Source of the DNA: Thermothielavioides terrestris NRRL 8126
Taxonomy: Eukaryota > Ascomycota > Sordariomycetes > Sordariales > Chaetomiaceae
Length of the DNA: 64,000 nucleotides
Direction of reading: 5' to 3'
Assembly: GCF_000226115.1 (NCBI RefSeq)
Contig: NC_016457.1
Coordinates: 4,712,001-4,776,000 of the forward strand
Below are positions 8,505 through 55,175 of the stretch, piece after piece. The first letter of the stretch is position 1; every line of letters begins with the position of its first letter. A program made the translations under genes and the position numbers. The notes below the pieces were generated by a model that worked only from the letters and a program-made list of their open reading frames with translations, ran no database searches and was not told the origin of the DNA.

Positions 8505-8530
8505 CCCCCCCCCCCCCCCCCCCCCCCCCC
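8505..8530. repeat. Poly-C run of 26 bases
   Basis: An uninterrupted run of cytosines within a wider C/T-rich stretch (about 8487-8534). On the opposite strand it is a G-run able to form quadruplex DNA. It is prone to length error in both replication and sequencing. Confidence 0.9.
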
Positions 8531-8837: not shown

Positions 8838-8861
8838 GACAAGCAGACAAGCAGACAAGCA
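8838..8861. repeat. Three tandem copies of GACAAGCA
   Basis: The 8-bp unit GACAAGCA repeats three times without mismatch. It is a minor minisatellite with no evident function. Confidence 0.8.
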
Positions 8862-29939: not shown

Positions 29940-30561
29940 AGTAGGCGCTATAAGCCTTATTTGTTTTCTTTCGCCTAGTTTAGGAAAGAGCTAAGTAGCC
30001 TTCCTACCTTCGAAGGCTTACCTACCTCTTTTTCTTAATCCTCTCGCTAGTTCGCTTACAATCGACCATTTCTTCTACCTCGTCTATTACGCTCTGATTT
30101 TTTCTTACGATCGTTTTAATTGGTCTAGATCTTTTTGCCTAGAGAGCGACTTTTCTTATAAGCCAATTTTTTATATACTATCGTAAATATCGCTATAGGC
30201 CATTGTAGGATTCCCAATTTCGTAGGGCCTATATAGCCCTAGGCCAATATAACTGTTAACCTAGGATAGAAGTAGCTATTTAGAGAGCTTAAGTTTTATA
30301 TACCGTAAAGTTTGTAGAGGCCTGTCGACAATAGCAATTAGGCGTAGTATTATACCTCCCTTATATAGCAAGAGCTAGGCTTAAAGATACTAGGCTACCT
30401 AGGTAAGACTAGCCCTAAGCTTTTCCTATTTTTATAGACTTTGAAGAAGTACCTATAAGATATAATTAACCAACGACCTAACTAGATCCTAAGCCCTTAG
30501 CTTAGTATAAACCCTAAGATTATAAAGTACCTATTCCTAGACTAGCTAAAGGGAAGGTCTT
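29940..30561 (+). pseudogene. Element I third frame, part 1 (before element II)
   Basis: Codons starting at positions divisible by three read through this part with only TAG/TAA stops, each one transition away from Gln or Trp. It ends ...LKGRS at the element II target site GTCTT. The frame continues in register at 41153 once element II and one target duplication are removed. No domain was recognised in this part. It has moderate coding character only. Confidence 0.55.
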
Positions 30562-30810
30562 TGTTACACGCCGATGGCTCTCGGTGACCATCTGACGGTA
30601 AACGTATGAGGGTGAGAAAGATCAATGCCTCTCAGCTTCGTTAGCTGATGAGGCGGCACTCCTAAACACTAGTATATGTTACAAAAGTATATTGATACAG
30701 TCTGTCTTCCTACGAAGGGGTTCTAGGTGAGGTTCCCCTTTTTAAGGGAACGCTTGTCACCCCTGACCGCGGTACGGTTATGGGTGCCCTTGCCACAGTT
30801 GTATATAACA
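30562..30810 (-). repeat. Element II 3' LTR
   Basis: 249 bp, with TGTTA...TAACA ends. It differs from the other LTR at about twenty sites, all transitions as far as I can align them, with no length difference. Its base composition is close to normal genomic DNA and unlike the adjacent internal sequence. Confidence 0.93.
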
Positions 30811-30999
30811 AGTGCCTAGGGACAAGAAGAAAAAGATGGCGTCCTCGCCATCATTATAGAACTTAATATAGGATGAAGGAGCGTATAGAAAGGGAAGAAA
30901 ACTAATCTACATTATACCTTATATAGGTTTTGTATCCATTATCTCGTCCTATAGCGAAGTCCTCTATTGCGATATGTCCGTTCACTTGTTCTACTTATC

Positions 31000-33150
31000 G
31001 AGATCAACCGTACTATTACTAGTATAGGGGTCGTCTCTTTCGACTTTAGATGCCTTTGTTGCCGCCTTATATTCAGCAGAAGTAGGCGTCTTCTTAAGCT
31101 TTTTGGGAGGACGTATTGGCGTCTCCTATACTTTGTCGTCAATGGTTACTTTACATTGGCGCTTAGTAGCGGTGACTTCGACCGTTTTAGCTCTCGACGT
31201 TGAATAGGTGTTCTCATTGCGCTAGCTTTGTAGCGTCTTAGCTAGTGTCGTCGATGCAATTGGCGGCGCGGCTTTAGCAATAGGTGCCTTAGTAGGCGTT
31301 CTCTAGGCGAGTGGCTATATAGTCTTAGTAGAGTATATAGCTGTTACGGTTATAGCTTAGCTAACCTTAGGTGCTGGTTCTTAGCGCTTGTTGGGCTAGA
31401 CGGTCGTAATAGTCTATCTCGTAATTTCCGTCTCACTAGGAATTACGCCTAATACGACCGTATAGGCCTTGAGGATTGTTATATAATGTTCAAGGTCTTA
31501 TATACGCTTCGACAAACTTATATAGATAATATCTTGTATATCGGAGGTTATATATATAACTACGTCGATATCTTTGTAGAGTATATTGTTTATACAATGG
31601 AGTTCTATTATAGTCTTGTCGTAGGCTTGCCGTATATCGTTGATCTTCTTGATCCAATGATAGTGCATTTTATCTAGGTTGGCTTAGAAGGCAAAGGTAT
31701 CTAGCTCTATATATCCGGTGTTCCTATTTATATCTATAGCGCCGATATATCTTGTAGATTCTATAGCGATATTCTCGACTTCCTTGATATATACTCAGTA
31801 CTTTTATACGAAATGCAACAGGTCTTTAGTAAACGCCTATACGGTCTTTATATTAGCTTAGAGGGATTTGATAGTAGCTTCGTTCGCGGTAATTGTATAG
31901 CTAGCATCGCTTACTATATCTATAGCTTTAGCGTTGTTGTAGTATACTAGGCTAAGCTCTACTAATATCGTATTGATAGATAGGTTGCCCTCCTCTTTAG
32001 GCGATATATATTGTAAGGTAAGGATCTCGATGGTAGTCGGTATATAGCTTGTAGTCACTATTCTAGTCTCCTAGAACTCCTTAAGGGCCTTTTTGACTAT
32101 ACCTTTGATCCTATAGATATATAAGTTGTAAGCGAAGCTAGCTAGTTTATCACTAGGATCTTTTTTCAGGACTATACAATAGAATCTAGTGAACTACGTT
32201 GTAAGCTTAGCTATATATTCTTCGTTATAGCCGAAGTCTATATATATATAGGTAAGTGCCTTGCTTATAGTAGCGATATACTTGTTTATAGCTTTTGTAG
32301 GGCGACGGGAATAACTATAGGATATATAGGTCTCTTATAGCTTTGGAATACAATATAGCTCTATGGCTATATCCTCCTTATCACTAGTATAATTGGCCTT
32401 ATCGTCGTCTAAGGTATCCTAGTCGTCGTCGCTTACGACTGTTTTATTATTAGATACGATATATATAGCTTGTTAAGGCTCTTTACGCTATACGTAGACG
32501 ATTACAACGTTATCGATAATAGGGTATTGGATCCTAAGCGTATATTAGAGGGGTTGTTCTTCTTCTATATACTTGTGAGTAAGAAGAGCGTCGAGGTACT
32601 CTTATACCACATCGCTATTTAACGCTTCTTTATAGTCTTCGGTGACTTTAGGCTCGTCGTCTAGAATAACAATAGGGTCTAAGATAGCGGCTTGCTCCTG
32701 TTCCTTATATATAGTTTCCAAACTATTCTAGATCGCTCTAGCTATATTAGCTTTCTTAGCGACTGTTATTTCGATGTTATAGGCGACTTTGGCGACGATG
32801 TCCTTGGTTGTAGCTTGGTGGGACGTATACGCTTCTATAGCGTACGAAGGGGTATTAGGTATATTGATGACCTTCGTAGTACCTTCCGTTTACTTTGTAG
32901 CGAGGCGAGCGCTTTCTCTTTTTTAGGTACCGGTAGTATAGGTTTTAGTAGGAGTCTTTTATATATAGGGAGGTATTCTATATACGATAAAGGCTAGTCG
33001 GGTGTCTCCCTTAGTAATGTCGATATAATCGTGTTTAAGCACTTTGCTACTTAATGACGTTAGTGAGCTAAGAGAATCGACTATATAGTCGCCTCTGTCG
33101 TTAACGTAGATACTATAAGAATGTATAGCGGATTGTTTCGAGTTGCAAAT
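31000..33150 (-). pseudogene. Element II third frame downstream of pol (unidentified protein)
   Basis: I followed one minus-strand frame (codons ending at positions divisible by three) base by base from about 32100 to 31020; it appears to extend up to about 33150, so up to 700 codons. Stops are TAG, TAA or TGA in positions that fit RIP of Gln, Trp or Arg codons. Content: an acidic segment with SDDD/LDDDK, a helical stretch (KMHYHWIKKINDIRQAYDKT) likely to form a coiled coil, a Pro/Thr/Ala-rich part and a Lys-rich C-terminus (PPKKLKKTPTSAEYKAATK). No enzyme motif, zinc knuckle or membrane segment is recognised. It occupies the env position of a retrovirus-like element. It could be an accessory protein or captured host sequence. 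Confidence 0.6.
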
Positions 33151-33959
33151 ATAGTGTAAGCGCGTGCCGACTGATAGTAGCTTATATAAATGTATATAGC
33201 TTAGTGATAAGAAGGTTTAACGATCGATTATATAGCGAATACGAATGACTACGATAAGGAATTGTTAGGGAAGATGGATACGTTGAGGTTGATATATAAA
33301 AAGAAAGGAAATTGTAGTGGTCTACGTTGGGCCGTTCTAGAAGTAAATAAAAACAATGGCGCGATGCTTATAGCTAATGAACAGTGTTGCTATCTAGTAG
33401 TAGCCGAAGAATAGAACATTATACCTTCGAGGCTTGAAGCCCTATACCTTTATAGCAATAGAATAGCTTTCTTTGACTATTTATAGGTCAAAGTCAATAG
33501 CGAATCTAGATATAGGAAAACTGGAATAAGCAAAGTACTTGACGAACTGAATAACTATAGTTTTATAACTAAAAGTGTTAGTAATGTCTAAGTAAAGGGT
33601 AAGGAGAAGAAAAATTAGGAGATCTATAAGATAGAGGACGACGCTTATACGTCTAGTAGTAGTATAACGGTGATAGATATACTAAAGCGAACATGTTCTA
33701 ATAAGGAAAGTATAAGCGAACAAAAGGAAGAAAGGGAAATAGGAAAGAAGGAAAGAGAAAGAGAAAGTCAATAACAGTATAGCTATCAGTGGTCGTTGCC
33801 CTTCCTTCGCAGTAGCTCGACGACAACTTAGTTCCAAGACCAAGGAATCTCCTTTACTTCCTCCTATTCCTTAATAGCGATACCCTTGTTATAATGTTCC
33901 TTCTCCTAGTCGATAGGGTACGCCTTTTTATACTCCTCAACAAGTTCCTTAGCACCGTT
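33151..33959. other. Element II spacer between third frame and chromodomain
   Basis: Low-information AT-rich DNA. On the plus strand it is purine-rich near 33690-33775. No frame could be assigned. Confidence 0.35.
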
Positions 33960-36900
33960 AATAAGCTAGATATATAGAATCCACTAGTCGTCTTTGACGG
34001 TAAATCCTTTCTATTGTACTAGATACTCGACTTTGGGTCTCTAGTTCCTCTAAGTGATACGCCGTTGTACGATTCTCTCGACTTCCTAGTGCTCGTCTCC
34101 GTCAACAATTATAGGGCTAGGGGGTTCCGCGTTATAGCCAAAGGGGTTTTTCCCCTAATCCAGCTTCTATAACTGGGAAATTAAAACTATAAGATGGACT
34201 TTCCAACTAGCTAGGAAGTCAAGTTTATAGGCGTTCCTGTCGATTTTATAGACAATCTTGAACAGTCTTGCCCACTATAGCGACTACTTTCGTTTAGGCT
34301 TTCCTAGAAGATAGTATCCGTTATATAGTCGTAGGTAAATAGTGTCTCCTACTTCGAACTCGATAGATATATGCTTATCGTTGTAACGTATCTTCGTAAT
34401 AGCATCTATATAATCGATCTATTCTGCTACTTCCTTTTAGTATTGTTGTCTAAGGATACTAATAGCTTCGGCGGAGGCAACGGTGCCCTTCTTACAATGA
34501 AGTATATCTAGGATAGAGCGTAGTTTAAAGCTATACACCAACTCGTTCAACGATCTTCCAATAGTGACTACGAATATATTGTTGAGATTGTACTACAATA
34601 TAGGGAGAAGTAGAGGCTATAGCGTTCCTAGTTTTTCTATAGCTTCTATACGGATAGCGATTTCTACTATCTAGTTCGTCCTTTCTAACTGACCGTCCGT
34701 CTAGGGATAATGGGCTATCAAGAAAAGGAGGCTAACGCCTAAGATATAAAAGATTTCTTTCTATAGGTTAGAGGTAAACTTAGTGTCTTAGTCGCTAATG
34801 ATTTGCGTTGAGAGTCCCTAATCTATATATATTAGCGCTCTAAGAATTATAATAGCCTATTCTTCTACTAACATTTTGTCGTTTCTAGCTATAAGAAGCT
34901 TCTTCTTACTAAACTTATAGATGATGATGTATATAGTGTTGAGAATCGGGTACTTCTTTATTGACTACGGTATCCCTTCGGAGGGTATAGCAGATAAACC
35001 AACGATAAAATCTATAGTGATAGTATAGAAAGGCTACAACGGTGTCCGAATTGGCTAAAGGTCTCTAGGCTTCGGTTCTCTCAAGGTCTAGTTCTCTTTG
35101 TATATAGGGTAGTGCTAAACGTACTTATATACTATCTAGCGCTTTCGATTAAACGCGAATGCCGAGAGGTTCGCTATTATATTGTCTATACCGAAGTGGT
35201 GAGTGTTGTTGTATACAACGGTAAGAATGTCTTTAATATAGCTACTAGGGATGTAAAGCTTCCTCGCTCCTTCGTAGTCGACGTAGTAGAGGAGACTGTC
35301 CTTCAGTTTATAGGGTCCAAGCTATAGCTTTCGGTACTACTTTTTTTATAGCTCTCCTTCTCGCTTTTTACATTCTCTCTGTTTAGCGATCTTCTTAGCT
35401 CGTTCTTCTATATTGTAGAGACTCCTAATGATCTTATTGTACTGGTGGTCGTTAGGGTAAACTATAGTCAACTTAGCTTTAAACTCGTCACTGATAACTA
35501 GTTCGAAGGTGCTAGTGTCTATAATATAGTATTCCTCGGTGTCGATCTAGGTAGTAGACCAAATGTCCTCTAGTTCGTTGGTAGCGTCTTAGGTTTCGTT
35601 AGGGGCGTCCTCTTCGAAGGTCGGTAGGCGTAACAAGGCGTTTAGCACAACGTTGAGCTTTCCTAGTATATAGAAGATATTGAGATCGAACTAGGATAGC
35701 TAGTTTATAGCGTTAACGAGCTTTAGGTTGGCCTTTACAAGGTCCATAGTAGCGAGAGATATATACTTTACAATGCCTCTAGTCGCTATATGGTCTATTA
35801 GAATGTTTATAGAGTATTAGTTTGACTATACCATTTTCCAGAGCTTCCTAACTACTTATACAATAGTGGCGACTTCTACTTCTATACTTCTATACTTCCT
35901 TTCTACGTTAGAAGTCAGATAGGACAAGAATATAATAGGCTAGATCTCGCTATTTGGGATATCTTAGCCAAGGATACTAGTGCCGTCCTATTCGCTATAG
36001 AGTTGAAAGACGATTACTCTATATCCTTTGCTACTTACGTCGAGCTTGATGAATAGCGGCTTATTAGGATAGTGATGATATAGGAAGTATTGTTTATATA
36101 GGTGTTTCTATAGTAGCCTAAAGGACTCTAGTTCCGTTGGTATAGGCTTGAATTTAACGTTCAAAGTAAATGCCTTCCTAGTATTCTTCGACTTGGCGAT
36201 AGGAAGGTCTTCGTTTACTCTCCCTTAGGCAAGGAGTTTAGTCTTATAGTCCTATAGAGGCTACGCTTTCGCTACGTACTACGGGATGCCTTTGTATAGC
36301 TATCCGGCTATACTAAGGTACTGTTCTAAGGTCTCAAGGGTATTAAGGAACTTAAGTTTCTTAAATATAGCGATCCTATCGTTCGTCTTAGCCACTCCTT
36401 CGCCATTGACTATATAGCTAAGCAGTCTCACTGACGGGTAGGCTACAAAGGATTTTTCTACTAAAATATAAATATATACCTTGTCGAGGATATCGAGAAC
36501 CGTTTCAACGTACTTGAGGTACTCCTCTATATTCTTACTAGCGATAATGATATCGTCGATATAGGCGTATACAAAGTGCTTATACTTATAGAATAAGTGG
36601 TCTATAAAGCGCTATACGAAAGCTAGCGAGTTTTTAAATCCTATTAGTACAACGTTCGAGCGTTCTAAACCTCTAGGACTGATAACTACTATATAGTCAC
36701 GGTGTTCTTCTACGATTGGAAGCTGGAAGAAGAATCTAGAGGCGTCGAATACTATAAAGATCGTATTACCTATCATTATATTTATAATGTCATTTTAGTT
36801 GAGCAATGGGTATATATCCGGTACTACCAACGTATTTAGGGGCTGGAGGTCCACTATAGCTCTGCCTTTGGTTTTTCTAGCAACTATATAGTAGACTACG

Positions 36901-37980
36901 AAGACTAGGTAAGCGATAGGGGTTGGCTAGTCTATAAAGTCCATCTTTCCTTGTATATATAGTTTATTATATTCTTCGTCGACGATCGCTTAGTCTTTAG
37001 CGCTTAGTAGATAAACTTGAACGGGCTTAAGCTGATTTTACTATCTATCGATAAACGGAATTCTTATCTTCTGATCCTTTAGTATAGGGACAATGCTATA
37101 GTTATAGAAGACGTTATACTTGTCTAGCAGTGCCTTTATCTCTTCCGTATACCGTTTGTCCCTGCTATAGACGCTTACCCCTACTACTAACTTGATATAT
37201 AGGATGTCGTCTAGTCTTTCAATGCTATAGGATAGCGTATAGAACTCTTGCTTAGTGGGTAGCTTGTGCTTATCCTCTATCAGTATCTCTGTTATCGGTT
37301 CTTTACCGCTAGGCTCCTATTGCATAGTTGTTGTCATCTATATATATTTGTCGTTCGTAACGTTATCCTAGGTCTACTATATAAGGTTCTATACTATTGC
37401 CTAGATATCCTCCTTTAAGCTATACTAAAGAAGGTGTCCAATACGTTGTCCTTCGACAATGGTGATCGGGCGAGCAATGTTGTTCCTTACAACGGCTTAG
37501 TATACACTCTTCGTATCTACGATAGCGTCTAGTATACCTTCGACGTATAAAGCGAAGTAGAGCTCGCGTTTCTAGCTGCCTAGATTGTCGTCATCGGTGT
37601 CTATAGGCTTGAACGCAGTCTCGATCAAGTGTTCCATTATAGGTACGACCGTTATAGTGTTTACGGCTTTCACCTTCTGGATTGTTCTTTTCCGTTCTAC
37701 GTATACTCTTACCTTTATATTGTAAACGGACTAGAAGTAATAGGTAGATATATTGAGGTTAATCTTTACTCCGTTATAGAATATAAAGTCAGTTCCAATC
37801 AATAGTTTCGCTCCTAAGCCTTCAATGACGTTGGCTATTATAGTGAAGTGATCGTCTACGTTGGTACTATAGACGATTCCTCGGATATAGAAGTTAAACT
37901 CGACTTGCTTCTTGACTTCGGTATAGGCTCCAACGCCTTTAACAAAGTACAGCTTTATATCGATCTAGCGTAGGTTCTTA
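33960..37980 (-). pseudogene. Element II pol remnant (RT, RNase H region, integrase, chromodomain)
   Basis: Minus-strand blocks in order: an RT palm with VFDASRFFFQLPI (near 36740-36700) and HFVYAYIDDIIIA, with the Y-x-D-D motif at 36563-36552; an integrase C-terminal core motif near 34715-34685 reading HYP-stop-TDGQLERTN, where the stop is TAG in place of the usual CAG (HPQTDGQ.ER.N); and a chromodomain near 34095-33970 reading EVERIVQRR...VEYLVQ-stop-KGFTVKDD, where TAG replaces the usual TGG of the VKW/VQW motif. RT before integrase, plus a C-terminal chromodomain, defines a chromovirus. In the family the chromodomain reads H3K9-methylated nucleosomes and steers integration into heterochromatin. 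Frames are broken; no function is expected. Confidence 0.85.
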
Positions 37981-40850
37981 GCCTACTTAGAGATAAACTC
38001 CTTGTCGACGAGGTTAGCGTTGCTACTTATATCGAAGTAAACCTTGGTGCCTAGCTCGCCTAGGTTCGCGCTAATATTGATTATAAGGTATATAGCTTGC
38101 TTGTCCAATGCTTTCAGTGGCAATATATATAGCTACACTTCTATAATCTGTCCTTCGGTTAGTATAAAGTTTATATCCTTATTATTAAGCTTATCCTCGT
38201 TGTTACTAAGATCGTATTAGCGGTCTATCTAAGGTTATATAGGCTTATACTTATCTTCGTCGCTATTGTTGGCTATATACTTGAAAAGCTTACAATATAT
38301 TACGAAGACTCTGCTATAGGCGATATATTGCTAAATTCGTAGAAGCTATCGTAGTAGTTTGTTCCGACTTAGTCTAGGTTAACGAAAGGTATAATATAAG
38401 TGGTAAGAACTATCGGCTTCCTCGTCTTTCGACTCCTCGTCCTTAGCTTTAGTATCGTATTCGTCGATAAGAATATACCTAGTCTTCTTTAGCATCTTAT
38501 AGTAAAGGTTGACGTCTTTGTCGTCCCTTGTCACTATAATCTTGCTATAGTATAAGAAGGTGCTATCTTCGAACTACTTTTTATATATATATATCCGAAT
38601 CCGTTAAAGTCGTCGAGGTCGAGGTAGTCTTCCCTAGTTGCCGTTGTCGCCTCTTCTCTAGCCGTTGAACGGTTTAACTCCTCTTCTACGATCGTTGAAT
38701 AGTCAGTATCCTCTTCTATATCTAGTTGTACTATAGAAGTTTCGGTCACCGAATAGCTATACTTAGTTACTATCTCTACGTTAATTGTTTCTAGGTCGCT
38801 AGGGTTTGTCTTTGTCTCTTCTCTAAGGATCGTAGTGTCCTCTTTTGCCTCTTCCTATCTAGAAGGCTCCGCTATCCTCCTAGTCGTTTCCTCGTCCTTC
38901 GTTGTTGTACTCTATATCTACGTTGTTGGCAATAGGACCGTGGCCAATGATATAGCCCTTGGCGATGTCCTAGCGAAGCTTGTCTTTGACGATATATACT
39001 TTAGTGTCGAGGATGCTAAGGAACGTACCTATCTCCGTAGTTACATCTAGTTTAGGGTATAGCTAGTGAAGCTCTAGATAGAGGCAGTTGTATAAGCGTA
39101 TTAGACGTTGCTCCTTAGTAGTGTCTCCCTAAATGTATATATATTTAAAGTATTCTATAGTAAATTTCTAGACTAGCTTGTCTTTATAGTTGTCCTTCGC
39201 GGTATACTAGTTTTTATTTAGCTATTTCTCTGCTTTATGTCTTTTGATATCAAACTCCTTTTTCAAGCGTTTAGTCTATATTTTTATAGATATAGTCAGT
39301 GCTGCCTTTTCTATAGTAGAGAGCTACTACTTATACTATTGTAGCGCTAATTCTCGAAATAGGGTCTATATCTCTATACGTAGGGTCTCTTCTTTTGCTA
39401 GGTAGTATCTAACGACCTAATCCACCTACTTAACCCAAATGTTGACATCCCTATAGTATAGCTGCTATTTATTGTACTATAGGTCTTAGGGTTCTTTAGC
39501 CTCGTTCTCTATATTCGGCTAGAAGAGACCGGTATCCTAAATCTTCTATTTCAACATAGGTATAGCTAGTTACGAAGATATAGTGCTTCTATCCTTGGTT
39601 TCGAGCTAACGGTCTTCTACGCCTATAGCCCTATTCGCCTTTTCGATTATAATGTTCAAGTTCTCTATTATTCTAGCTATCTAGGTAAGAAAGTCCTATA
39701 TAGCGAACGTAGCTTAGATGTCTATAGCTCTAGCTGCTTGTCTAAAGGGTCTAGCTCCTTGTCCAGAAGGTCCAGCTACTTATCTATATAGTAGGCTCGA
39801 TATCTCTTAGAATAGTAAAGAGACATTAGAGTCGACCAAACTGTCTATATATTCCGTCCTAGGGTTCTAGATAACTATGTTTAGTCTAGGAAGCTCGGAT
39901 AGGTACTAGGATAGTTGGCTAGACGTCTATAGTAGCGGCTAGGGAACCTAGTCGAAAGCGCTAATCAACTAAGCTATTAGAGATAATAGGTCTTCCTCTT
40001 TAGGTTATCGGTTCTAAGGCGGTAGATCCTACGATCCTCTTAGCGGTACTTAGTAGCGTCTACCAAGATTGTAGCTACTAACGGTATAGGTTTTACGTCC
40101 CCGTTAAAGAATAGTTGACGTGTTTTAGGGCTCTAGTTGCTCCTAGAAGGTTAGGCTTAGTAGAGTTGCTAGCTAGTTCTTAGTCGGATTACATCTAGTT
40201 CTTACTAATGTTTCTAGTAGTATAGCTAGTCCTAGTTGCTGATCGTTGGTCCTTTAAGGCTTTAAGGTCTTTAGCGGTCCTCGACTCTCTAGTGCTAAGG
40301 TCTCTAGCGTTTCTTAGGTCGAGTCCTTAGCCTTCGAGGTAGCGTCTTCGATCCTAGGGTCTAGGATAAGGTTCTTGTTGACGGCTACTCAGATTTTGCG
40401 TCTAATAGTTGCAAGGTGGGCACAAAGAATATAATTGTTGAGTATCTAAGAGGGAGGGTACTCTACGATGTACGGTGTTCCAGTGTACCGTTGGGCATAG
40501 GCGTCTTCTTCTAGTGCCTCTTCGAGTAATGTAGCGGCTTCTAGGTATTGGAGGTCTTAGGGGTTAATAGCGGTTATCCACTGGACGTTGTAGGTGACCT
40601 CGAAGTCCTTAATAAACTTGAGTGTCTGCTATACGTCCTTATAGACATTGGCGTTTATAAGGCTTGAATCCGTCTAGCTTCTAACTCTTTGCAAGTGCTT
40701 AGTACTAGAATGACGGTAGCTAGGTCGTAAACCGGTTCGTTATAGATCGTATACTCCGAAGCTTGCTCCTTTACAAAGGAGCATTATCTACCTCAGGCGT
40801 TGCTCTATACAACTTACTAGGCGTAACTCGTAATATCTCCCGATCTGAAC
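37981..40850 (-). pseudogene. Element II gag and protease remnant
   Basis: Minus strand. Near 38042-37997 the sequence VYFDISSNANLVDKEF resembles the aspartic protease start (D-[ST]-G-[SA]), with a later LLIGTDF matching the C-terminal (I/L)-L-G-x-D element. Upstream, 39400-38850 is a long charged helical region (FDIKRHKAEK, DNYKDKLVQKFT, GDTTKEQRLIRLYN) of the type found in gag capsid domains. A Glu/Asp/Thr-rich segment lies at 38749-38534. I looked for a zinc knuckle between them but could not establish one. The gag call is by position and character, not by a firm motif. Confidence 0.6.
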
Positions 40851-40880
40851 TTGGCTCCCCTCGACGGGAAGTGAACAGGT

Positions 40881-40903
40881 TCGAATCGTTAGTAGGCACC
40901 ACT
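40881..40903 (-). other. Candidate primer-binding site of element II
   Basis: Read on the minus strand, the 5' LTR ends ...TAACA, then AG, then TGGTGCCTAC. TGG 0-5 nt after the LTR is the usual start of a site complementary to a tRNA 3' CCA end. The complementary strand continues into TTCGAATC, the T-loop consensus, about 15 nt upstream of CCA. The pairing would therefore extend into the T-arm. The spacing is one nucleotide shorter than in a canonical tRNA. Confidence 0.5.
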
Positions 40904-41152
40904 TGTTATACGCCAATGGCTCTCGGTGACCATCTGACGGTAAACGTGTGAGGGTGAGAAAGATCAATGCCTCTCAGCCTCGTTAGCTGATAAGGCGGCA
41001 CTCCTGAACACTAGTATATGTCACAAAAGTATGTTGATGCAGTCTGTCTTCCTACGAAGGGGTTCCGGGTAAGGTTCCCCTTTTTAAGGGAACGCTCGTC
41101 ACCCCTGACCGCGGTGCAGTCATAGGTGCCCTTGCTATAGTTGCGTATGACA
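40904..41152 (-). repeat. Element II 5' LTR
   Basis: 249 bp; see the paired LTR at 30562-30810. It is followed on the plus strand by the target duplication GTCTT. It includes CGGTGACCATCTGACGG and a TTCCCCTTTTTAAGGGAA hairpin, both conserved in the two copies. Confidence 0.93.
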
Positions 41153-41157
41153 GTCTT

Positions 41158-42079
41158 TAATAGATCGGTTTTTCGATATCTATTTTATAGATATAGATAT
41201 TTCGCTCTTCGATATAGAAGGTATATTGTTTAGTAAAGAATAGCTAGATTATAGGATAATCTTAGACGTTATATAGTTTTTTTTTCGCTTTTACAAGGAT
41301 TGTCTTTAGATCTATCTATAGCTAGTCTTAGACTATAGTTCTACACTAAAGGAGTTCTACCGATCTAACTAGAGGGTCATTACTAACAATTGCTATTTCT
41401 AGGTTTTCCTTTACTTCGTTAGCGGAAGGCATTAGGTAATTACGATCTTCGATTAAGTCGAAGGTCGGCTCTACTACTTCGACTCCCTGTTTAAGAGCTT
41501 AGAGATATATACTAATATCTTATTAGAGGTCTAGATCGCCTTTTAGTCTATCTATAGGTTCCTTTAGATATAGCTATATAAGGAGGTTATCGTCTACTAC
41601 CTTTAGCAAAGTTTAGAATAGGAGTATAGATAGTTTGCTCTCGAGTTTATATAGGCCTTTCTTTAAGAACTCTAGCCCCGCCTTCTAGACAGATAGATGT
41701 AGTTTAGGCTACCCTAGCTTTAGCTATACTAAGGAGATAGCGAAATAGTTATATAGCGATATATATTACATTTATAGTTAGGAACTTATAGGCTAGCTCT
41801 TAGTACCTTTAAGGATTACCTACTTTGTACTAAGGTAGTCCCTTTATTACTATAGGACAATAGTAAGATGTACAAGCTCCCTCTAGACCTATTGTCTTTG
41901 ACCGAAGAGCCTATATAGCCTATAGTCTTGGAGTACAACGAAGATAAGGTGATCGAAGTCCTCTAGGCCAACAACGTATTTACATTCGATGTTCCTAGAC
42001 TTAATGACCTACCTATATATCTCTATAACCACTTTAGCGATATAGAACTTAGGATCCTAGTTATATATTTAGTAGTATT
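41158..42079 (+). pseudogene. Element I third frame, part 2: Ulp1-like C48 cysteine protease domain
   Basis: Codons starting at positions divisible by three; the first follow directly from part 1. The domain start reads E-stop-LDYRII (TAG for a usual W in WLDDxII), then NNCYFQVFLYFV. His at 41430-41432 is followed by TAG for Trp (H-W), and Asp at 41481-41483 lies in YYFDSL exactly 17 residues later, the His-Asp spacing I know for yeast Ulp1. A Gln codon turned TAG (41721) is followed six residues later by AGC (Ser, 41739) and GAA, in a GDS-E context where Ulp1 has Q-x5-C-G. The nucleophile is therefore Ser in this copy, and Gly reads Glu (one transition). The Asp-to-nucleophile gap (86) is longer than in Ulp1. 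It ends at the element III target site. The known role of C48 enzymes is cleavage of SUMO or related C-termini. Confidence 0.7.
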
Positions 42080-42465
42080 TGTAATAGCATAGCACGCTAA
42101 CCACCGTTATATAACTCGTATACAGACCTATTACATAACTATATACTTACGTGACCTCCTAAGTTGGTAGATTTATAGAATTCGAGTCGACTTCCGGATT
42201 AGGAAGGAGGGGTTGACTTACCAATAAGGAAAAACGCGCTAATAAGGCGAACCGCATCTTACCCTACAATATATAGACTTTATAGCCCTACTACAAATTG
42301 TAGCCCTACTATAAATTGTCTATATATACTACCTAAGGTATTTGAGTATAGTTTTCTACCTATATATTGATAGTTTTCCTCTCTCTCCTTAGACTTAAAG
42401 TCTTCGTCAATCGAGGATCAATTCAGCTACGAGTCATCTAGCACTTGTTTTACCTTGCTATAATA
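42080..42465 (+). repeat. Element III 5' LTR
   Basis: 386 bp, beginning TGTAATAGCATAGCACGC and ending ...GCTATAATA. It aligns without gaps to 48245-48630. Differences are transitions. Confidence 0.95.
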
Positions 42466-44450
42466 TTACTTTAAGTCTTACTACTATAGGCCTACGAAGG
42501 CGATATAATATCCAACATAGTCTTTCTCGACAAGACCAGTTTAGTTGGCTAGGGAACCCGAATCTCCGACAGAACCTTCGACTTGCCGACAATGCAGTAC
42601 AACAAGTTGGCTAGGAACCAATTGGCACCGAGGATAAACCGTCAAGTGTACAATAGGTTGCTGATAGCAAAGCAACCTCTAATCGACTAGCAGCAAGTAG
42701 TACGATTACCCTATCGAAGCGATTCAACTATATCGATCGACAAAAGAAGTCCTAAAAGAGATACAATACCGATAATAACTTATAAGATAGAGAATGTAGG
42801 TTATCCTTCTAGGCCTACCGAATAGGGCTAGAATACCTAGAAGATTAATCAAGTAGATCTCTATAAGTTCAATGTAGAAGGTAACCAAGGTATCTAAATT
42901 CGATTGAAGATTAGCGATTTAACTCTATTTAACTCTTAAACCTAAATAACTACCAACTTAATCGAAGAATATAAATTTACAAATCCTATTCTTAAGTTTT
43001 TCAACTGAATTAGCTAGATCAAGTATTTAGCTAAGGAATAGGAAACAGATTTGATTAAACGTTATCTAAGGCTTAAGAACAAATATATTACTATTGCTTA
43101 TTTCTCTTAGGATAACGAACCGATTACTCCTAAAGAGATCTAGCTATTGAGTACTAAATAGGTCGATCAATTATAAGGCAACGATCTTATTAAGATAATT
43201 CGATTAATTATTATACAATGTAATATAGCAATTGGATAGGCTATAGCTCTACGAGTCACCTATAATACGCTAGCCAATTCGATAGCAATGCTACTTACAA
43301 GGGTTTAGCAATTTAAATAAGAATAAGGCAATATCTCTAACTCTAAAGAACTTTCTACTTTATATACCTAAGTTGAGGTACTCTTATACAATAAAATAGC
43401 ATTAGAAGACAAAAGGATAGAACTCCTTAAGAAGATTGCTAATATAGTCGATCTATAGGGCTAAACTATACCTTCGACCTAAACTAAACCGATATAAACC
43501 GAGATATATACAGAGTTATATAACCTCGATCGTCTAATCCTAATAACCGAAAAGACTCCCAAATCTACGACTTATATAAAAACTACGAAGATTACCGACC
43601 CTAAGAAGTTTATCGATAGCAAAGACCTAAAGTATTTAGTCTAGAAGGTAGCTATACTTTAGAAGATCAAGGGGAACTACGAATTGTTTTTAATAGAGGA
43701 CTCGAAATTCGGATATACAATGTCTTTTATTGGTAGCAAAGCAATAGAGGCTCTTATACCCTACTTCGAGGAGAATATAGCAAAGCTAATCACCAATCTT
43801 AACAAGTTATTCGACTTCCTAGACGGATTTTATATCGATTCTACTGAACTCTGTTATATAAAGAACGATTTTACAGTCCTAAAAATAAGATCTATACCCT
43901 ACTATAAGTTCCTTACTAAGTTTGTCCACCTTACTACTAAGTCTAAAAAACCTAAAGACAAATAGAAAGAAGAATTCTATACTCGACTCTTTTAGAGCCT
44001 ATATTTCCAAATAATAAGAGACCTAGTCGATCTAAATATTAGCTTTAACGACTTTATTCGCCTTAGACACTAGTTCTCTTTACTCTAGGAGATGGCTAAG
44101 AAGGATTAGAAGGATAGAAAATCTAGTTCACTAGGATCTAGACAATCGAATAGAGGAATAGCTCCTATAAAGAAAAAAGAAAAGACCCTTTAGCCAGATA
44201 GTTTCGATAGAGGTAAAGCCAAATTAGGATCTCCTAGGCTCTCTTAGAAGGAGCGTAATGCCCTAAAAGAAGAGGGTAAGTACTTCTATTGCTAAGAGAC
44301 CGGTTATATAAAGGCGTAGTGCCTAAAATATATTGCAACTACAATTAAGAAGATAGAGGCAAACCTAGAGAAAATAACGAACTTAGTCAAAGAAAATAAG
44401 ACTAAGACTATCGAATCGGAAAACTAAGAGCCCTAAGGAAAATAGACTCT
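42466..44450 (+). pseudogene. Element III gag remnant
   Basis: Plus-strand coding-like DNA between the 5' LTR and the protease. The longest intact piece is 43684-43965 (93 codons), with ALIPYFEENIAKLITNLNK and LTKFVHLTTKSKKPKDK. A Cys-containing motif near 44283-44325 (YC-stop-ETGYIKA-stop-CLKY) fits a mutated CCHC zinc knuckle. The function would be the capsid/nucleocapsid protein. No primer-binding site is clear after the LTR. Confidence 0.65.
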
Positions 44451-47400
44451 AGCTTAGAGCTAGATATTAGGTTAGCGGCTACTTAGATAGACCTTTAGTA
44501 GCTTATAGGCGGTTAGAGTCTCTCCTTCCCCTATACATTAGCTATTAATAGAACTAGTATTACTATCATTATACTCGTTGACTTTAGAGTAAACGGATAT
44601 ACCTTTTTTAATTGAACCTATATAAAGTGAATCGCTAAGAAACTTAGTATTAAAGAAATACTACTCGAGACTCCGATCTCTATAAAAGACTTCCAAAGCT
44701 AATCTATAAACCCTATCGACTCGATCCTAAGACTCGACCTCCGAATTGATAAAAGAATATAGAAGGACACTCTATTTTTAGCCCTCGATATAGAGAAGGA
44801 GTATTAGCTATTATTAGACTAATAGTAGCTCGCTTACTACAATATTCTACTAGATATTCGTCAATATCAACTAATCTAACCTAAAGACAAATTATATAAT
44901 CTAGAATAGAATTATATCTTTAAGATTCTTTACAACTCCCTTGTTCCTAAGGTACTAAACCCTAAATACTAAAAGGATACTAAATAAAGAGACTAAACGA
45001 TAAAGCGTTAAGATTAGTGTTAGAAGGCTTAATAGTAGCTATAAATACTAAAGTATAGAGAAACACTCCTTAAACCCTTATCCAACAAATCTTACTAATT
45101 GATACAATCTACTAAAGATCTAGGAATATATCGATTAGTACAACCTAAAACAAGTCTAGGATTATATTAATCGGTACAACTTAAAGTCTCTAAAACGTAT
45201 ACCACTAGGAGCAATCTCACTGAACCCCCTAAGAAACCCCTTTAGAAGGTATTATTCGAAGGTATATAGGACAATAGCCTCTAGAAGATAGACTAGACAC
45301 TGAAGAGAGAGGAATTTATCCCCCTAAGAACCTATACTCGACCTATAATACCTAAGGAAGAGGAGGAATAGGCCACTTCCTAGGTAGAAGAAGGCGAGCA
45401 ACTATAGATTCTAAAAGACCTAATCAAAGCTATAATCATCTCTACTATAGCCTTTAATAAAATGTTCCTTAAAGGAAACTAATAAGGGAATTCTATACTA
45501 GGGTTTATTACAATTGCCTAGATCGACCGAACTATTAAAGCTAAAAAGACTAATAAACTCCTCGACGACGAGGACAAAGAGGTCTAAGCCTAAGTCGAAG
45601 AAGCGATTACAAAGTACCCTTACTTTACCGAATTTGCCAATGTATTCTTAAAAAAGGAATCTAATAAGATACTACTAAGGCGTAAATACAACTATAAAAT
45701 TGAACTTACTGGACTACTACCCTAGCGAATAAGCCCCTTATACTCCTATACTTTCAACTAGCTAGAGACTATGAAAAAGTACCTAGTTGAGAACCTATAA
45801 AAGGGTTTTATCGAGCTAAGTGCCGCCTTATATAGCTCCCCTATACTCTTCGCTATTAAAGGAGATAGGACCTAGAGATTTTATATCGACTACTAAGCCC
45901 TAAATGAGGTTACCGTCAAGGATCGCTATCTACTACCCTACATTGACGAAATCTTATAACAACTAGGAAACGCTAAAATCTTTACTAAGATCGATATCTA
46001 GTAAGCCTTCTACTAAATCCGACTTACCCCTAGAAGCGAAGACCTAACAACCTTCTAAACCTAATATAGTCAATTCCACTATAAGGTCCTGCTATTCGGC
46101 CTATATAATAGACCTACTACCTTCTAGCAATTCGTCAATTCCTAGTTCTTTAAGTACTTCGATATATTTATAACTATCTATATCAATGACCTAATTATCT
46201 ACTCTTAGAACAAAGAAAAGTACTATAAATATATACGACTTATCCTTTAGAAGCTATATAAAGCAGGTCTCTAGACGGACATCAAGAAATATAAATTCTA
46301 TACTACCGAAACCAAGTTCCTTAGGTTTATCGTTAGCACTGAAGGCGTCTAAGTAGACCTAAAGAAGATTAAGACAGTAGTTTCTTAGGACCGACCTACT
46401 ACTGTATAGGGAGTATAAGCCTTCCTTAGATTCTACAACTTTTATCGCTAATTTGTCTATAAGTATAGAAGGATTATATATCCCCTATAGCGTTTAACCA
46501 TCAAGGGAAAACCGTTCAAATAGACCAAAGAGTATAAGGAAGCCTTCTAAGAACTTAAAAGGCGAATAACCAACACCCTACTCCTTAAATACTACGATCC
46601 TACCAAAGAGAGCTAAATCGAAGTCGATATATCTAGTAGAGTCGTAGCTAGAGTCTTCTAGTAGAAATACAACGATAGTTGGCACCCTATCACGTTCTTC
46701 TTAAGAACAATGTCTAGACTAGAAAGCAATTACTCTACGACAAGCCACTAGGCCTCCTCAAGCCCTTAGAAGTCCTTGCAAGACCTTGGTAGCACATTAC
46801 TATAGACTTCTATACAATGCTCTAAGACAAGTTGGGCTACAACTAAGTCTTCGTTGTAGTAGACCGCCTAGGGAAGCGTAGCTACTCGCTCCCCTGCTAT
46901 AAGACCACCATTGCCAAAGAGATAGCGCAACTCTACTACCAATATATTTAGTATACTTATAGAGCCCTAGAATCGATCACTTTAGACTAAGGCCCTCAGT
47001 TTATCTCGGTATTCTAAGACGAGTTCTATAAAATCTTTAGAATTAACCTACGCCTCTCTTCTTCAAAGTACCCCTAGACGGACGGGTAGACCGAAATTAT
47101 AAATCAATACCTCGACTAGCATCTATACCCCTTCGTTAACTATTTCTAAGACAATTGGTTAGAATTATTGTCTATAATAGATTTTACTTAAGCCATTTTA
47201 CCCTACTCGTCTACTAGCCTCGCCCTATTCGAGGTCGAGACTAGTATACTCCCCTAGATAATCTACAATTAGTAGAAGTATACTTGAGAATTTAGTAGCG
47301 CTAAAGACAAGCTTAATCGCACTAAAGTGTAGAAGATGCTCTCTAAAATCAATTCTATTATCCAATTCGCTAAAGAAAGTATATAGAAAGCCTAGGAAGC

Positions 47401-48232
47401 CTAAAAGCGGCAAGTAGATAAGTATCGGCGGCTAGAAGAATTTAAAGTTGGTTAGGAGGTCTACATTACGAAGGGCCGCTAATAGACGAACCAACTAAGC
47501 GACAAGCTCAACTACCTAGTCGCTAGGCCTTTCTCAATTATCGTTAAGAAGGGTTATTCTTATAAGCTAAAGCTACCTAAGACCTAGAAGATATACCTAG
47601 TGTTTACTCTAGATCAACTCTAAAGGGCATTGAATGACCTATTACTAGGTTAAGAGCTTTAGCCTAAGCCGCTAATTAAGGTAGATAGCGAATTAGAATA
47701 GTAAGTTAAAAAGATTTTTACCTCCTAGATATTCAAAGGGAAACTCTAGTATTACGTTCAATAGATCGGTTAAGGCGAGGACTCTAAATGGTACGACGCT
47801 ACTAATTTTAAAAATGTACTATATCGCCTCTAGGAGTTCTACAAGGAATTCCCCTATATAGCCGAACTACCTTGGCGATTACCGTAATAGCTAAAAGCTT
47901 ATAAAGAGAATTACTTTGATAATAAATACCTAGATAATAACCTACTAATACCTAAAGGACAATGCAATCCAACTCGATCTAGGAGACGTTATATATACGT
48001 ATAAACCTACTATAAGGTCGTAGGATGATATTTCATCCTAGCTCCCTTATATACCCACTGGCCTAGATATAGCATCTTATATAGCCTAGTGGGCTATAGG
48101 GCAGATTTCTAAGTCCTATAGAACTCAATTGTATAAACTTTGTAAAAAATAGGCTTGCAAGCCAACTCTTCTAATTACCAACAGCTAGCGGAGGACTATA
48201 ATATATCTATCGTATAGGTACAACGCTTTTTC
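44451..48232 (+). pseudogene. Element III pol remnant with integrase chromodomain
   Basis: Protease-like VDFRVNGYTFF near 44575 (ancestral D-S-G-A). RT: FYIDY-stop-ALNEVTVKDRYLLP and FTKIDI near 45870-46010, then IYINDLIIYS near 46176-46206, where the first catalytic Asp of Y-x-D-D reads Asn (GAC to AAC). TETKFLRFIVSTEGV and an RNase H start follow. Integrase: GPQFISVF near 46992 and YP-stop-TDGQTEIINQYLD near 47070-47120. Chromodomain near 47740-47815: YYVQ-stop-IG-stop-GEDSKWYDATNFKN, the stops replacing the aromatic Trp residues. All breaks are transition-type. The domain set is complete in order, so the ancestor was an autonomous chromovirus. Confidence 0.9.
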
Positions 48233-48244
48233 GAGGGGGGGTAA

Positions 48245-48630
48245 TATAACAGTATAGTACGCTAACCACCGTTATATAACTCGTGTATAGACCTATTACG
48301 TGACTATACACTTACGTGACCTCCTAAGTTAGTAGATTTATAGGATTCGAGTCGACTTCCAGATTAAGAAGGAGGGGTTGACTTACCGATAAGGAAAAAC
48401 GCGTTGATAAGGCGAACCACGTCTTACCCCGCAACATATAGACTTTGTAGCCCCACTGCAAATTGTAGCCCTACTGCAAATTGTCTATATATATTACCTA
48501 AGGTATTTAAGCACAGTTTTCCACCTATATATTGATAGTTTTCCTCTCTCTCCTCAGACTTGAAGTCTTCGTCAATCGAGGATCAATTCAGCTACGAGTC
48601 ATCCAGCACTTGTTTTGCCTTGCTGTAACA
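48245..48630 (+). repeat. Element III 3' LTR
   Basis: 386 bp, beginning TATAACAGTATAGTACGC and ending ...GCTGTAACA. It is preceded by a G-rich polypurine tract and followed by the target duplication GTATT. Confidence 0.95.
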
Positions 48631-48635
48631 GTATT

Positions 48636-49440
48636 TAAGGAAGCCTAGCTCTCTAACTAGAGTAAGAAAGGAGTAATTGCCACTGTCTAAATCATCCTTA
48701 CGCCTTAGTCAAAGAAGGATATAGCCTACTAGATATACTATTATAAAGTTATAGGACTCCTACTAAATAAATAGCTAAGTAGCGTACCGCCTTTATAAAA
48801 CCTTATAGACGACCTTAGACAATAGCTACAAAGTACATTTCTAATACCTAGTACTATTCTACCCTTTCGACTAGAGGACTAGCAAGCTACTTTAGGTCTA
48901 TTAACGACATTTATAGAAGATCTTGACAATATATCAACCTAGTAGGATATTAAAGCTAAGATTATAGAGATTACTACGCTATAAGCGACTACGATATAAA
49001 GGTTTGTTGATGCCTCTATAGACAAGATGAACTAGGAGCGCCTCCTTAGTAGCGACCTAGTCAAGGACCTTAGGGTACTAGTATAGGTAGCCCTTAAGAA
49101 GATAGTACTCGATCTCTACCTTTAGGAAGAGGAGACGCTTGTCTATATGCTTATAAGGAGGCTAGACTACCTTAAGATGCTTTATACGCTAGTATAGAAG
49201 TATCTTTAAGCGTATAAATCATCTATATTATCTAACTAGATGTCACCTTCAGTATAGTACTATAGTAAGCGCCCTTATAAGGAGCTTACGAAGCCTAGAC
49301 GTCTACTTCGCCTACCACTATACAACCTATACAACTATACCTTCGTTTATAAGTATAAGTATCTAATATAGTAGTAGGGCTAGGACGTATATATTAAAGA
49401 GGTAGAGGAGTACGAAAGACGGTAGGATCAGCTACTATAG
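48636..49440 (+). pseudogene. Element I third frame, part 3 (after element III)
   Basis: Joining 42079 to 48636 keeps the reading frame: ...VIYLVVF is followed by KEA-stop-LSN. The frame goes on with a Leu/Lys/Asp-rich helical sequence (FVDASIDKMN, LLSSDLVKDLRVLV, EEETLVYMLIRRLDYLKM) and then a Tyr/Arg-rich end. Stops are TAG/TAA only, as far as I read. The frame ends about 130 bp before the 3' LTR polypurine tract, so the gene belongs inside the retroelement. No domain was recognised in this part. Confidence 0.6.
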
Positions 49441-49578
49441 CCAACTAGACCTTTGTAAGCCGAGCGAGCTATATATAGGGAGTAGCTCAAGGAGTAGCGA
49501 CGATAAGAAGCGCCTACTAAGAGAGCTTTTAAAGTATAAGCTTACCTATAGAAGTATATAGTAAGCTCGAAAGGGAAG

Positions 49579-50077
49579 TGTAGATTAGGGTAATAGACTA
49601 CCTAGATATAGGGGGACCTAGTTTTTCTACTTTTCTATTTATCTTAGAGCGTTATATTCGTTGTTAAGGGGTCTAGCCCTCTAATTATATATATTTAAAT
49701 AGGCTAAGCCTATCTTCTTTATTATTAAGTAAGATATTAAGCAATTGTTAATATATATTTATTGATACTACGTTGGTAGTCCTCCTTCTTTTAGGAAGGC
49801 TATTGAGCCTCTCCTTTCGTTGTTCTACCTCTATCTAGACGATAGGCATTCGAGCTATTGAGCTCTGACCGTATTCTTATTGTCTTTTATCTTTCTACTA
49901 TATCCTACTAGATATACCTGAGCTACGTATCTTCCTCTTAGGAGACATCCTTCCTACCACTCGATATACACTATCTTTATCTGTCCAGAGGTACACTACA
50001 TTCCTTTAGGAGCTATTTTACACGTCTAATCCTGGGTGTAGTGGGGTAGGTTGGTATAGAGGTTTTGCACCATTTCA
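49579..50077 (+). repeat. Element I 3' LTR
   Basis: 499 bp, starting TGTAGATTAGGGTAATAG after the purine run GAAAGGGAAG and ending GCACCATTTCA. It becomes less AT-rich towards its right end, close to the block boundary. Confidence 0.87.
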
Positions 50078-50124
50078 TTGTATTTGGCAGTCTCCGAAAT
50101 TAGTCTTAGCGAGACCTCTTTAAC
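50078..50124 (+). mobile_element. TIR element copy A, right end
   Basis: Starts TTGTATTTGGCAG and ends with the inverted repeat ...GAGACCTCTTTAAC. It aligns to the last 48 bp of copies C and D and completes the element interrupted at 19766. Confidence 0.82.
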
Positions 50125-55163: not shown

Positions 55164-55175
55164 TAAGGGGTAGAC

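What the first reader, a model, noticed from the sequence alone, without database searches (positions are those of the whole stretch)
29940..49440. Ulp1-like C48 protease frame downstream of pol in a gypsy element, split by two later retroelements and recoverable in frame
Seen: plus-strand codons at positions divisible by three run from about 29940 to 30561, resume at 41158 after element II and its GTCTT duplication, and resume at 48636 after element III and its GTATT duplication, with no frame loss at either joint. Stops are TAG/TAA only, as far as I read. In the middle piece His (41430), then a Trp codon changed to TAG, then Asp in YYFDSL exactly 17 residues on, and a Gln-x5-Ser-(Gly/Glu) motif at 41721-41744, reproduce the H-W / D / Q-x5-C-G layout of Ulp1. 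Known: C48 proteases are carried by some DNA transposons (for example plant Mutator-type elements). I know of no described gypsy element with such a frame between integrase and the 3' LTR. Inference: the ancestor encoded a SUMO-directed or self-processing protease that might counter host SUMO-dependent silencing.
Basis: partly seen in the sequence, partly recalled or inferred. Interest (0 to 1): 0.86.

Follow-up and report, generated by a model that had tools for sequence, protein, structure and literature searches.

The report
Gypsy retroelement with extra protease-like gene
A dead fungal retroelement family carries, between its integrase and its last repeat, an extra reading frame whose middle part looks like, but is not proven to be, a SUMO-protease-type enzyme; the extra frame is a constant part of the family, while the enzyme assignment rests on a four-residue motif.

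Summary
The frame belongs to the LTR element. In 19 of 19 other fetched copies of the same genome its middle piece runs into last piece and 3' LTR; 50 of 51 scored pol copies have the middle piece downstream; one copy of each of two further subfamilies has the same layout. Transversions, which RIP does not make, favour third codon positions in the outer parts (31 of 54, p=0.0004), in all ORF3 weakly (40 of 86, p=0.012), not in the protease-like middle (9 of 32).

A better one lies at 41607-41630: Gln-x5-[Tyr/Cys], His-Asp-Gln-Cys spacings 17/42/6 as in the host's Ulp1-like protein; Cys in 3 of 48 places, Tyr in 45.

C48 membership stays motif-level (p about 0.001-0.05). Pfam, PDB and protein-database searches found no C48 match, structure models failed, and Arg follows the Cys position instead of Gly. 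Best reading: an additional ORF with a remote Ulp1-like domain; new variant of a known kind.

The parts
19772..20264 (+). 5' LTR of element I (493 bp as aligned; by eye it may start at 19767)
   Evidence: 89% identical to 49583-50075; the 54 differences are 25 A/G and 29 C/T, no transversions
25026..25298 (+). reverse transcriptase piece, frame 0
   Evidence: Pfam RVT_1 E=1.9e-4, 21.7 bits (cut-off 29.6), with X at stops
25812..26003 (+). RNase H piece, frame 0
   Evidence: Pfam RT_RNaseH E=3.4e-6, above its cut-off, with X at stops
26481..26639 (+). integrase zinc-binding domain, downstream of RNase H as in Ty3/gypsy
   Evidence: Pfam Integrase_H2C2 E=4e-5, 24.1 bits (cut-off 25.5), with TAG=W and TAA=Q; 0 hits with X; also in 1 of 2 other copies tried
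27761..29850 (+). stretch between pol and ORF3 without detectable coding
   Evidence: 27761-28130 very variable, transversions 26/23/21 (B) and 24/18/15 (C), gaps in frame 3 of 9 (B) and 6 of 6 (C); 28131-29850 few transversions, 6/11/14 (B) and 6/6/8 (C)
30108..30561 (+). ORF3, first piece (shared frame; ends in the target duplication of element II)
   Evidence: same frame in A, B and C subfamilies; transversions 2/4/9 against B, 1/1/3 against C
30562..41152 (+). element II, nested LTR element with terminal repeats of about 250 bp
   Evidence: 91% identical ends, GTCTT duplication; no Pfam hit in plus frames of 30811-40802
41158..42079 (+). ORF3, middle piece, carrying the C48-like motif
   Evidence: present in 19 of 19 other fetched A copies; 94 protein matches in the genome, the window's own included
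41241..41630 (+). C48-like core: possible Trp-Leu position 41241, His 41430, Trp position 41433, Asp-Ser 41481, Gln 41607, Cys/Tyr position 41625, Arg 41628
   Evidence: the Trp-Leu position is a stop in 26 of 26 copies and is aligned with the C48 Trp only with TAG=W or in a loose path
42080..48630 (+). element III, nested LTR element with RT and RNase H
   Evidence: 90% identical ends, GTATT duplication; RVT_1 E=4.6e-16, RT_RNaseH_2 E=3.6e-13
48636..49520 (+). ORF3, last piece (codons start at 48637; frame shared by the subfamilies to about 49.52 kb)
   Evidence: transversions 11/6/22 against B (p=0.006) and 2/1/8 against C (p=0.02), counted over 48636-49500
49583..50075 (+). 3' LTR of element I (by eye it may start at 49579)
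   Evidence: a related LTR also follows ORF3 in the B and C copies

Best explanation
Element I is a large (about 13.1 kb without its two inserts) Ty3/gypsy-type element of a filamentous ascomycete, inactivated by RIP. Beyond pol it carries a further reading frame of roughly 750 codons (ORF3), set off from pol by some 2 kb, just before the 3' LTR. The middle third of that protein most likely descends from a C48/Ulp1-like cysteine protease with the His-Asp-Gln-Cys layout; the parts on either side are of unknown kind and are the better conserved ones. Most likely working (inferred): the protein is made from a downstream or spliced message as in other elements with an ORF3; it uses its flanking parts for targeting and its protease-like part to remove SUMO or a related modifier from host silencing factors or from the element's own integration complex, as suggested for Ulp1 domains of Ginger1 and VANDAL elements. 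Shown: family-wide presence, position, coding signal in the outer parts, motif. Inferred: protease fold, activity, substrate, benefit.
For: Middle piece, last piece and LTR follow one another without a break in 19 of 19 other fetched A copies, the best DNA matches; one B and one C copy followed have pol upstream and LTR downstream. 50 of 51 scored pol copies have the middle piece downstream on the same strand, 44 at 2.9-3.3 kb. Third-position transversions against B: pol 42 of 61, ORF3 outer parts 31 of 54 (p=0.0004), whole ORF3 40 of 86 (p=0.012). C48-like: HMM-HMM alignment puts 33 columns on HW...DS, score 23.3, above 100 of 100 column shuffles (maximum 20.5) and 30 of 30 frame controls (maximum 19.0). 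A semi-global profile alignment puts His, Asp, Gln and Tyr/Cys on the four catalytic columns; 2 of 1000 shuffles do so with X at stops, 1 of 1000 with TAG=W. Spacings 17/42/6 equal those of the host Ulp1-like protein. Cys in 3 of 48 places, Tyr in 45.
Against: No C48 match in Pfam, PDB or the protein database. HMMER with a C48 profile hits 8 of 18 rows, best 1.4 bits. With the four catalytic columns hidden the alignment loses its place (X rows) or keeps only His and Asp (TAG=W rows). One antisense frame does as well as the real frame (2 of 100 shuffles each). Over the whole of ORF3 the score is ordinary (44 of 300 shuffles as good). The residue after the Cys position is Arg (25 of 26) or Lys, not Gly. 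The His position is Tyr in 3 of 3 B copies. The protease-like part shows no third-position excess (9 of 32) and differs from pol (p=0.0004) and the last piece (p=0.03). A host Ulp1-like domain RIP-damaged in silico to the same GC still scores a median of 107 bits (from 210) with a profile of its relatives, so RIP alone would not hide a typical member.
Confidence: 0.57

Rival explanations
1. ORF3 is a real additional ORF (env-like or of unknown kind) and the C48 motif is a chance likeness picked out by a reader looking for known motifs.
For: No profile match; likeness confined to the catalytic motif; Arg instead of Gly after the Cys position; no coding constraint visible in that part; the RIP-tolerant pattern is expected 0.05 times per window.
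Against: All four catalytic positions fall at the exact spacings of the host Ulp1-like protein, which 1-2 of 1000 shuffles reach; the strict pattern is expected 0.007 times per window; His, Asp and Gln are the commonest residues over the 26 copies pooled.
Confidence: 0.3
2. The 3' region is a non-coding tail; the frame is an artefact of reading RIP stops through.
For: Stop density in this frame is no lower than in its other plus frames; the middle piece has evenly spread transversions; no protein homologue. That many A copies keep one frame is no argument: the A copies have hardly any gaps in the spacer either (17 of 18 without one). The stretch 28131-29850 has 14 of 31 third-position transversions against B, not clearly less than ORF3.
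Against: Third-position transversion excess in the outer parts (31 of 54, p=0.0004), as in pol; between subfamilies the gaps found in 30111-49500 in the alignments of the window with one B and one C copy are multiples of three (9 and 3 bases).
Confidence: 0.1
3. A DNA transposon or host gene with a C48 domain inserted into this one copy of element I.
For: C48 domains are carried by DNA transposons (PMC2836005, PMC3212892, passages read).
Against: 19 of 19 other fetched copies and both followed subfamily copies carry it at the same place; 50 of 51 pol copies have it downstream. Capture by the founder of the whole family remains possible.
Confidence: 0.02

Closest known systems
Ulp1-carrying DNA transposons and Cryptons: Ginger1, Mutator-like VANDAL/Kaonashi, CryptonF/S (PMC2836005, PMC13317346, PMC3212892; passages read)
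   Same: C48-type domain carried by a mobile element beside its transposition enzymes; in Ginger1 beside a gypsy-like integrase
   Different: those are DNA transposons or tyrosine-recombinase elements; here it lies in an LTR element, apart from pol, and the domain is not confirmed by profile
Ulp1-carrying non-LTR retrotransposons: nematode NeSL families and Utopia-1_TSP (PMC4640811, passages read)
   Same: retroelement with a Ulp1-like protease domain
   Different: there N-terminal in the protein of a non-LTR element; here near the 3' LTR of a gypsy-type element
LTR elements with additional ORFs: bdelloid Vesta/Juno with GDSL or DEDDy ORF3, orchid Gypsy with an AlkB-like domain, plant aORFs (PMC5408684, PMC9289625, PMC7264820; passages read)
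   Same: additional ORF in an LTR element; in bdelloids and plant aORFs between pol and the 3' LTR
   Different: 'Ulp1' occurs 0 times in the main text of each
Host Ulp1-like SUMO protease gene of the same genome (L002/L003)
   Same: identical His-Asp-Gln-Cys spacings
   Different: no stops, clear PF02902 match (E=9.5e-18); aligns with ORF3 only at the motif

Membership tests
Peptidase C48 (Ulp1, PF02902) | profile match over the domain | tested here: not met
   0 families for four readings of the single pieces, for 16 copies with X and for 22 copies with TAG=W/TAA=Q; none of 8 whole-ORF3 readings matches PF02902
Peptidase C48 (Ulp1, PF02902) | His-Trp and Asp 17 residues apart | tested here: met
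   His 17 and Tyr 9 of 26; Trp 9 and stop 17 of 26; Asp 23 and Asn 3 of 26
Peptidase C48 (Ulp1, PF02902) | Gln-x5-Cys | tested here: inconclusive
   Gln 17, stop 9 of 26; Cys in 3 of 48, Tyr in 45 of 48 places found with a pattern written on the Cys form
Peptidase C48 (Ulp1, PF02902) | Gly after the catalytic Cys | tested here: not met
   Arg 25, Lys 1 of 26
Peptidase C48 (Ulp1, PF02902) | CE-clan fold | tested here: inconclusive
   AlphaFold2 models pLDDT 28.7 and 36.1, not usable
Peptidase C48 (Ulp1, PF02902) | SUMO or ubiquitin-like deconjugating activity | not testable with these tools
   needs a protein assay
Ty3/gypsy LTR element | order RT - RNase H - integrase | tested here: met
   RVT_1 (under its cut-off) and RT_RNaseH; Integrase_H2C2 downstream, just under its cut-off, seen only with stops read as residues
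Ty3/gypsy LTR element | two LTRs flanking the internal region | tested here: met
   493 bp, 89% identical
Ty3/gypsy LTR element | target site duplication of element I | tested here: inconclusive
   no clean duplication read at 19762-19766 / 50078-50082

The most novel reading that the evidence does not exclude
A fungal Ty3/gypsy lineage carries its own Ulp1-type cysteine protease as a separate ORF3 next to the 3' LTR, fused to flanking parts of unknown kind, and used it against SUMO-dependent silencing; its fast protein-level divergence between subfamilies would reflect an arms race with the host.
Probability: 0.3. Interest if true: 0.72.

Novelty: new variant of a known kind. Interest (0 to 1): 0.5.

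Why it matters
Ulp1-type proteases recur in unrelated mobile elements (Ginger1, Mutator-like, Crypton, NeSL/Utopia; passages read), which suggests that undoing SUMO-type marks helps transposition or escape from silencing. An LTR-element case would add another major class. Seven of the ten paper searches combined Ulp1/C48/SUMO-protease terms with retrotransposon terms; in the titles and abstract starts of the papers they listed (capped lists; 20 of 35, 30 of 166, 15 of 83, 15 of 161) I saw no LTR element with such an ORF. The library lacks most subscription papers and all Repbase entries, so this is no proof of absence. Independently of the protease question, the case shows how transversions can test RIP-ruined DNA for former coding.

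Tried and rejected
One-off insertion of a C48 gene into element I: rejected. Stop type and stop density as evidence for the frame: rejected as uninformative. Frame conservation among A copies as evidence for coding: rejected, because the spacer of these copies is as free of gaps. Conserved frame from 29940: rejected. An antisense coding frame as the reason for the flat transversion pattern in the middle piece: stops counted, nothing better found.

Led nowhere: Pfam on pieces, copies and read-through; PDB profiles; protein database with one ORF3 region (1454 candidates) and with 17 copies (capped at 8000 candidates); viral contigs; two AlphaFold2 models, so no fold search was made; HMMER --max with a home-made C48 profile; hhalign in global mode gave a degenerate 6-column alignment. 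The last part (recount of gaps) returned nothing because its input files had been overwritten; the gap counts given are read from the table.

Rows chosen or dropped: 20 of the 40 scored DNA places came as loci (L007 is the window itself). Of the 19 other A copies, 13 have no gap in the three pieces and 6 (L008, L010, L016, L019, L020, L022) have one or more. The frame test used 12 of these 13 gap-free A copies (L024 left out) and 6 B/C copies, so its result (17 of 18 keep one frame; L068 has its last piece interrupted) is on pre-selected copies. A1 has the window and 15 A copies (L010, L019, L022, L024 left out); A2 adds L050 and six B/C copies; A3 leaves out L068; A4 leaves out L018 (it has TGA); A5 leaves out the window, L018, L020, and after L021 and L068. 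In one search the rows of the six-frame p2 control start at different offsets, so its frames are mixed; one search repeats the control in register. The pattern was written on the Cys form, allows 2 mismatches and does not reach the B copies, so its 3 of 48 is not an unbiased rate.

Full report
What is there. The window is G000:C1:4712001-4776000 of a 36.9-Mb, six-contig genome. An AT-rich block (33-42% GC in 2-kb steps, 20-50 kb) lies in 51-70% GC DNA. It holds three nested LTR elements. Element I has 493-bp LTRs at 19772-20264 and 49583-50075 (89% identical). Element II (30562-41152) and element III (42080-48630) lie inside it with duplications GTCTT and GTATT. Without them element I is about 13.1 kb (my arithmetic); an uninterrupted copy on C6 spans 13,127 bases between its LTR ends. 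RIP is plain: all 54 LTR differences are transitions, TpA/ApT is 1.88 in the middle and last ORF3 pieces against 0.55 in 1001-12000, and (CpA+TpG)/(ApC+GpT) is 0.33 in the middle piece against 1.23.

Element I is gypsy-type. Frame 0 carries RT (under its cut-off) and RNase H by Pfam with X at stops and an integrase zinc-binding domain downstream, just under its cut-off and only with stops read as residues. Between RT and integrase the frame shows a strong third-position excess of transversions against two other subfamilies (15/4/42, p=7e-9; 15/3/43, p=1e-9). RIP makes transitions, so transversions record divergence before RIP.

ORF3 belongs to the element. The middle piece has 94 protein matches in the genome, fragments and the window's own included. 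In the 19 other A copies fetched (the best DNA matches) the last piece and the LTR follow it without a break; 18 of 19 also have the full first piece and the upstream spacer, L010 not. One B and one C copy followed have the same pol, spacer, ORF3 and LTR (their gag was not fetched). Of 51 pol copies scored (of 129 candidates), 50 have the middle piece downstream on the same strand, 44 at 2.9-3.3 kb. This excludes a single insertion into element I.

Where the frame runs and whether it codes. After integrase comes a very variable tract (27761-28130) and then 28131-29850, where transversions against B are 6/11/14 and against C 6/6/8: no detectable coding, though a weak signal cannot be excluded there. 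One-base indels separate subfamilies within 29940-30107, so the shared frame begins near 30.1 kb; a one-base gap at about 49.52 kb ends it. Of the 19 other A copies 13 have no gap in ORF3; this is no evidence for coding, because 17 of 18 have none in the spacer either. Third-position transversions against B are 9 of 15 in the first piece, 22 of 39 in the last and 9 of 32 in the middle. The outer pieces together exceed the neutral third (31 of 54, p=0.0004; this grouping was made after seeing the numbers); the whole of ORF3 does so less clearly (40 of 86, p=0.012). The middle does not (p=0.58) and differs from pol (p=0.0004) and from the last piece (p=0.03). So the part with the protease-like motif diverged between subfamily A and B/C at a near-neutral protein-level rate. 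Relaxed or diversifying selection would both do this; I cannot tell which. Subfamily C is a mosaic: like B in the first part of the middle piece and like A in the last piece.

Stops. In this DNA TGA is rare in every frame, and the ORF3 frame has as many stops as its neighbours. 21 of 35 stop-bearing codon columns of the middle piece are stops in all copies compared (nine, at least seven per column), against 27 of 66 in pol. Some stops of the middle piece may thus be older than the RIP of single copies, a point against intactness of the domain when the family spread.

The protease question. Pfam finds nothing in the pieces, in 16 copies with X, in 22 copies with TAG=W/TAA=Q, or in 6 of 8 whole-ORF3 readings; the other two readings (TAG=Q) gave only unrelated matches far below cut-off. 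PDB profiles find nothing. Two protein-database searches find nothing at E<=1; they need shared five-residue words and similar length. Two AlphaFold2 models have pLDDT 28.7 and 36.1. For comparison, RT and RNase H of the same element are found with X at stops, but the integrase core is not, even with read-through. Simulated RIP on a host Ulp1-like domain down to GC 0.33 halves its score against a profile of its relatives (210 to a median of 107 bits), leaving it easily found in 20 of 20. So if ORF3 has a C48 domain, it was a remote member before RIP.

What supports C48 is the motif. HMM-HMM comparison of 23 X-masked copies with a C48 profile of 17 sequences puts 33 columns on HW...DS, score 23.3, P 0.018, above 100 of 100 column shuffles and 30 of 30 frame controls. 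With a looser setting the path continues so that Gln, Glu, Tyr and Arg meet Gln, Asp, Cys and Gly. My own semi-global profile alignment puts positions 91, 108, 150 and 156 on the catalytic His, Asp, Gln and Cys columns, with spacings 17/42/6 identical to the host protein L002. The score is reached by 20 of 1000 shuffles with X and 6 of 1000 with TAG=W; 2 and 1 of 1000 shuffles get all four residues right. The strict pattern is expected 0.007 times and its RIP-tolerant form 0.05 times per window of such DNA, each found once. Against this: hiding the four columns destroys most of the match, one antisense frame does equally well against its shuffles, and over the whole of ORF3 the score is ordinary (44 of 300 shuffles). 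Across 26 copies: His 17/Tyr 9 (Tyr in 3 of 3 B copies), Trp 9/stop 17, Asp 23/Asn 3, Gln 17/stop 9, all changes in the RIP direction. The Cys position is Tyr in all 26 of these and, by pattern, Cys in 3 and Tyr in 45 of 48 places. The Cys places belong to more than one subfamily judging by their identities, which favours Cys as the older state; this is inference. The following residue is Arg or Lys, not the Gly seen in the C48 sequences.

How it may work (inferred). Additional sense ORFs after pol are known in other LTR elements, and splicing that could express them has been reported for plant ones (PMC7264820, passages read); bdelloid elements have captured several kinds (PMC5408684, passages read). 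Ulp1 domains in other mobile elements have been suggested to act through DNA repair during transposition (PMC2836005, passages read). In some VANDAL elements the VANC anti-silencing gene contains a Ulp1 domain (PMC13317346, passages read). By analogy the outer parts would aim the protein and the protease-like part would strip SUMO or a related mark from silencing or integration factors. None of this is tested, and the lack of constraint in the middle part fits equally well a domain already losing its enzyme role.

Known or new. Ulp1/C48 domains are known in Ginger1, Mutator-like, Crypton, NeSL and Utopia elements; additional ORFs are known in LTR elements. In the listings of seven paper searches (four of them capped) I saw no report of a C48-type ORF in an LTR element; the library lacks most subscription papers. 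I rate it a new variant of a known kind, with the family-wide extra frame firm, its coding likely, and the protease assignment at a little under 0.6.

Noticed in passing
G000:C1:6053870-6057418 (L002) and C6:2166009-2169557 (L003): A Ulp1-like SUMO protease gene stretch is present twice, 3549 of 3549 bases identical, on two contigs of a genome with RIP: recent duplication, a RIP-free segment, or an assembly effect.
   Followed up: partly
genome-wide, for example C2:8844496, C4:3424020, C4:1888071, C1:2961967, C5:441056, C4:2114359: Eight of the 11 last-piece matches that begin at residue 47-70 have no middle piece of their own; several breakpoints near residue 60-70 suggest a non-autonomous, internally deleted derivative of the family.
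   Followed up: no
41158-42079 and 48636-49500: Subfamily C is a mosaic: no fixed purine/pyrimidine difference from B in 41160-41429, but only 7 from A (against 39 between A and B) in the last piece, so subfamilies recombined before RIP.
   Followed up: partly
41158-42079: The protease-like piece has no third-position excess of transversions (9 of 32), unlike pol and the last piece, and 21 of 35 stop columns are stops in all copies compared. Unexplained.
   Followed up: partly
27761-28130: Very variable tract just after pol: 70 transversions against B and 57 against C in 370 bases; gaps against C all in frame (6 of 6), against B 3 of 9. Possibly a variable pol tail.
   Followed up: no
19431-19685, 50252-50563, 53772-54094, 55170-55445: Another diverged repeat, in direct and inverted copies, flanks element I on both sides.
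   Followed up: no
30562-41152: Element II is 10.6 kb with LTRs of only about 250 bp and no Pfam hit in its plus frames with X at stops; minus frames were not scanned.
   Followed up: partly
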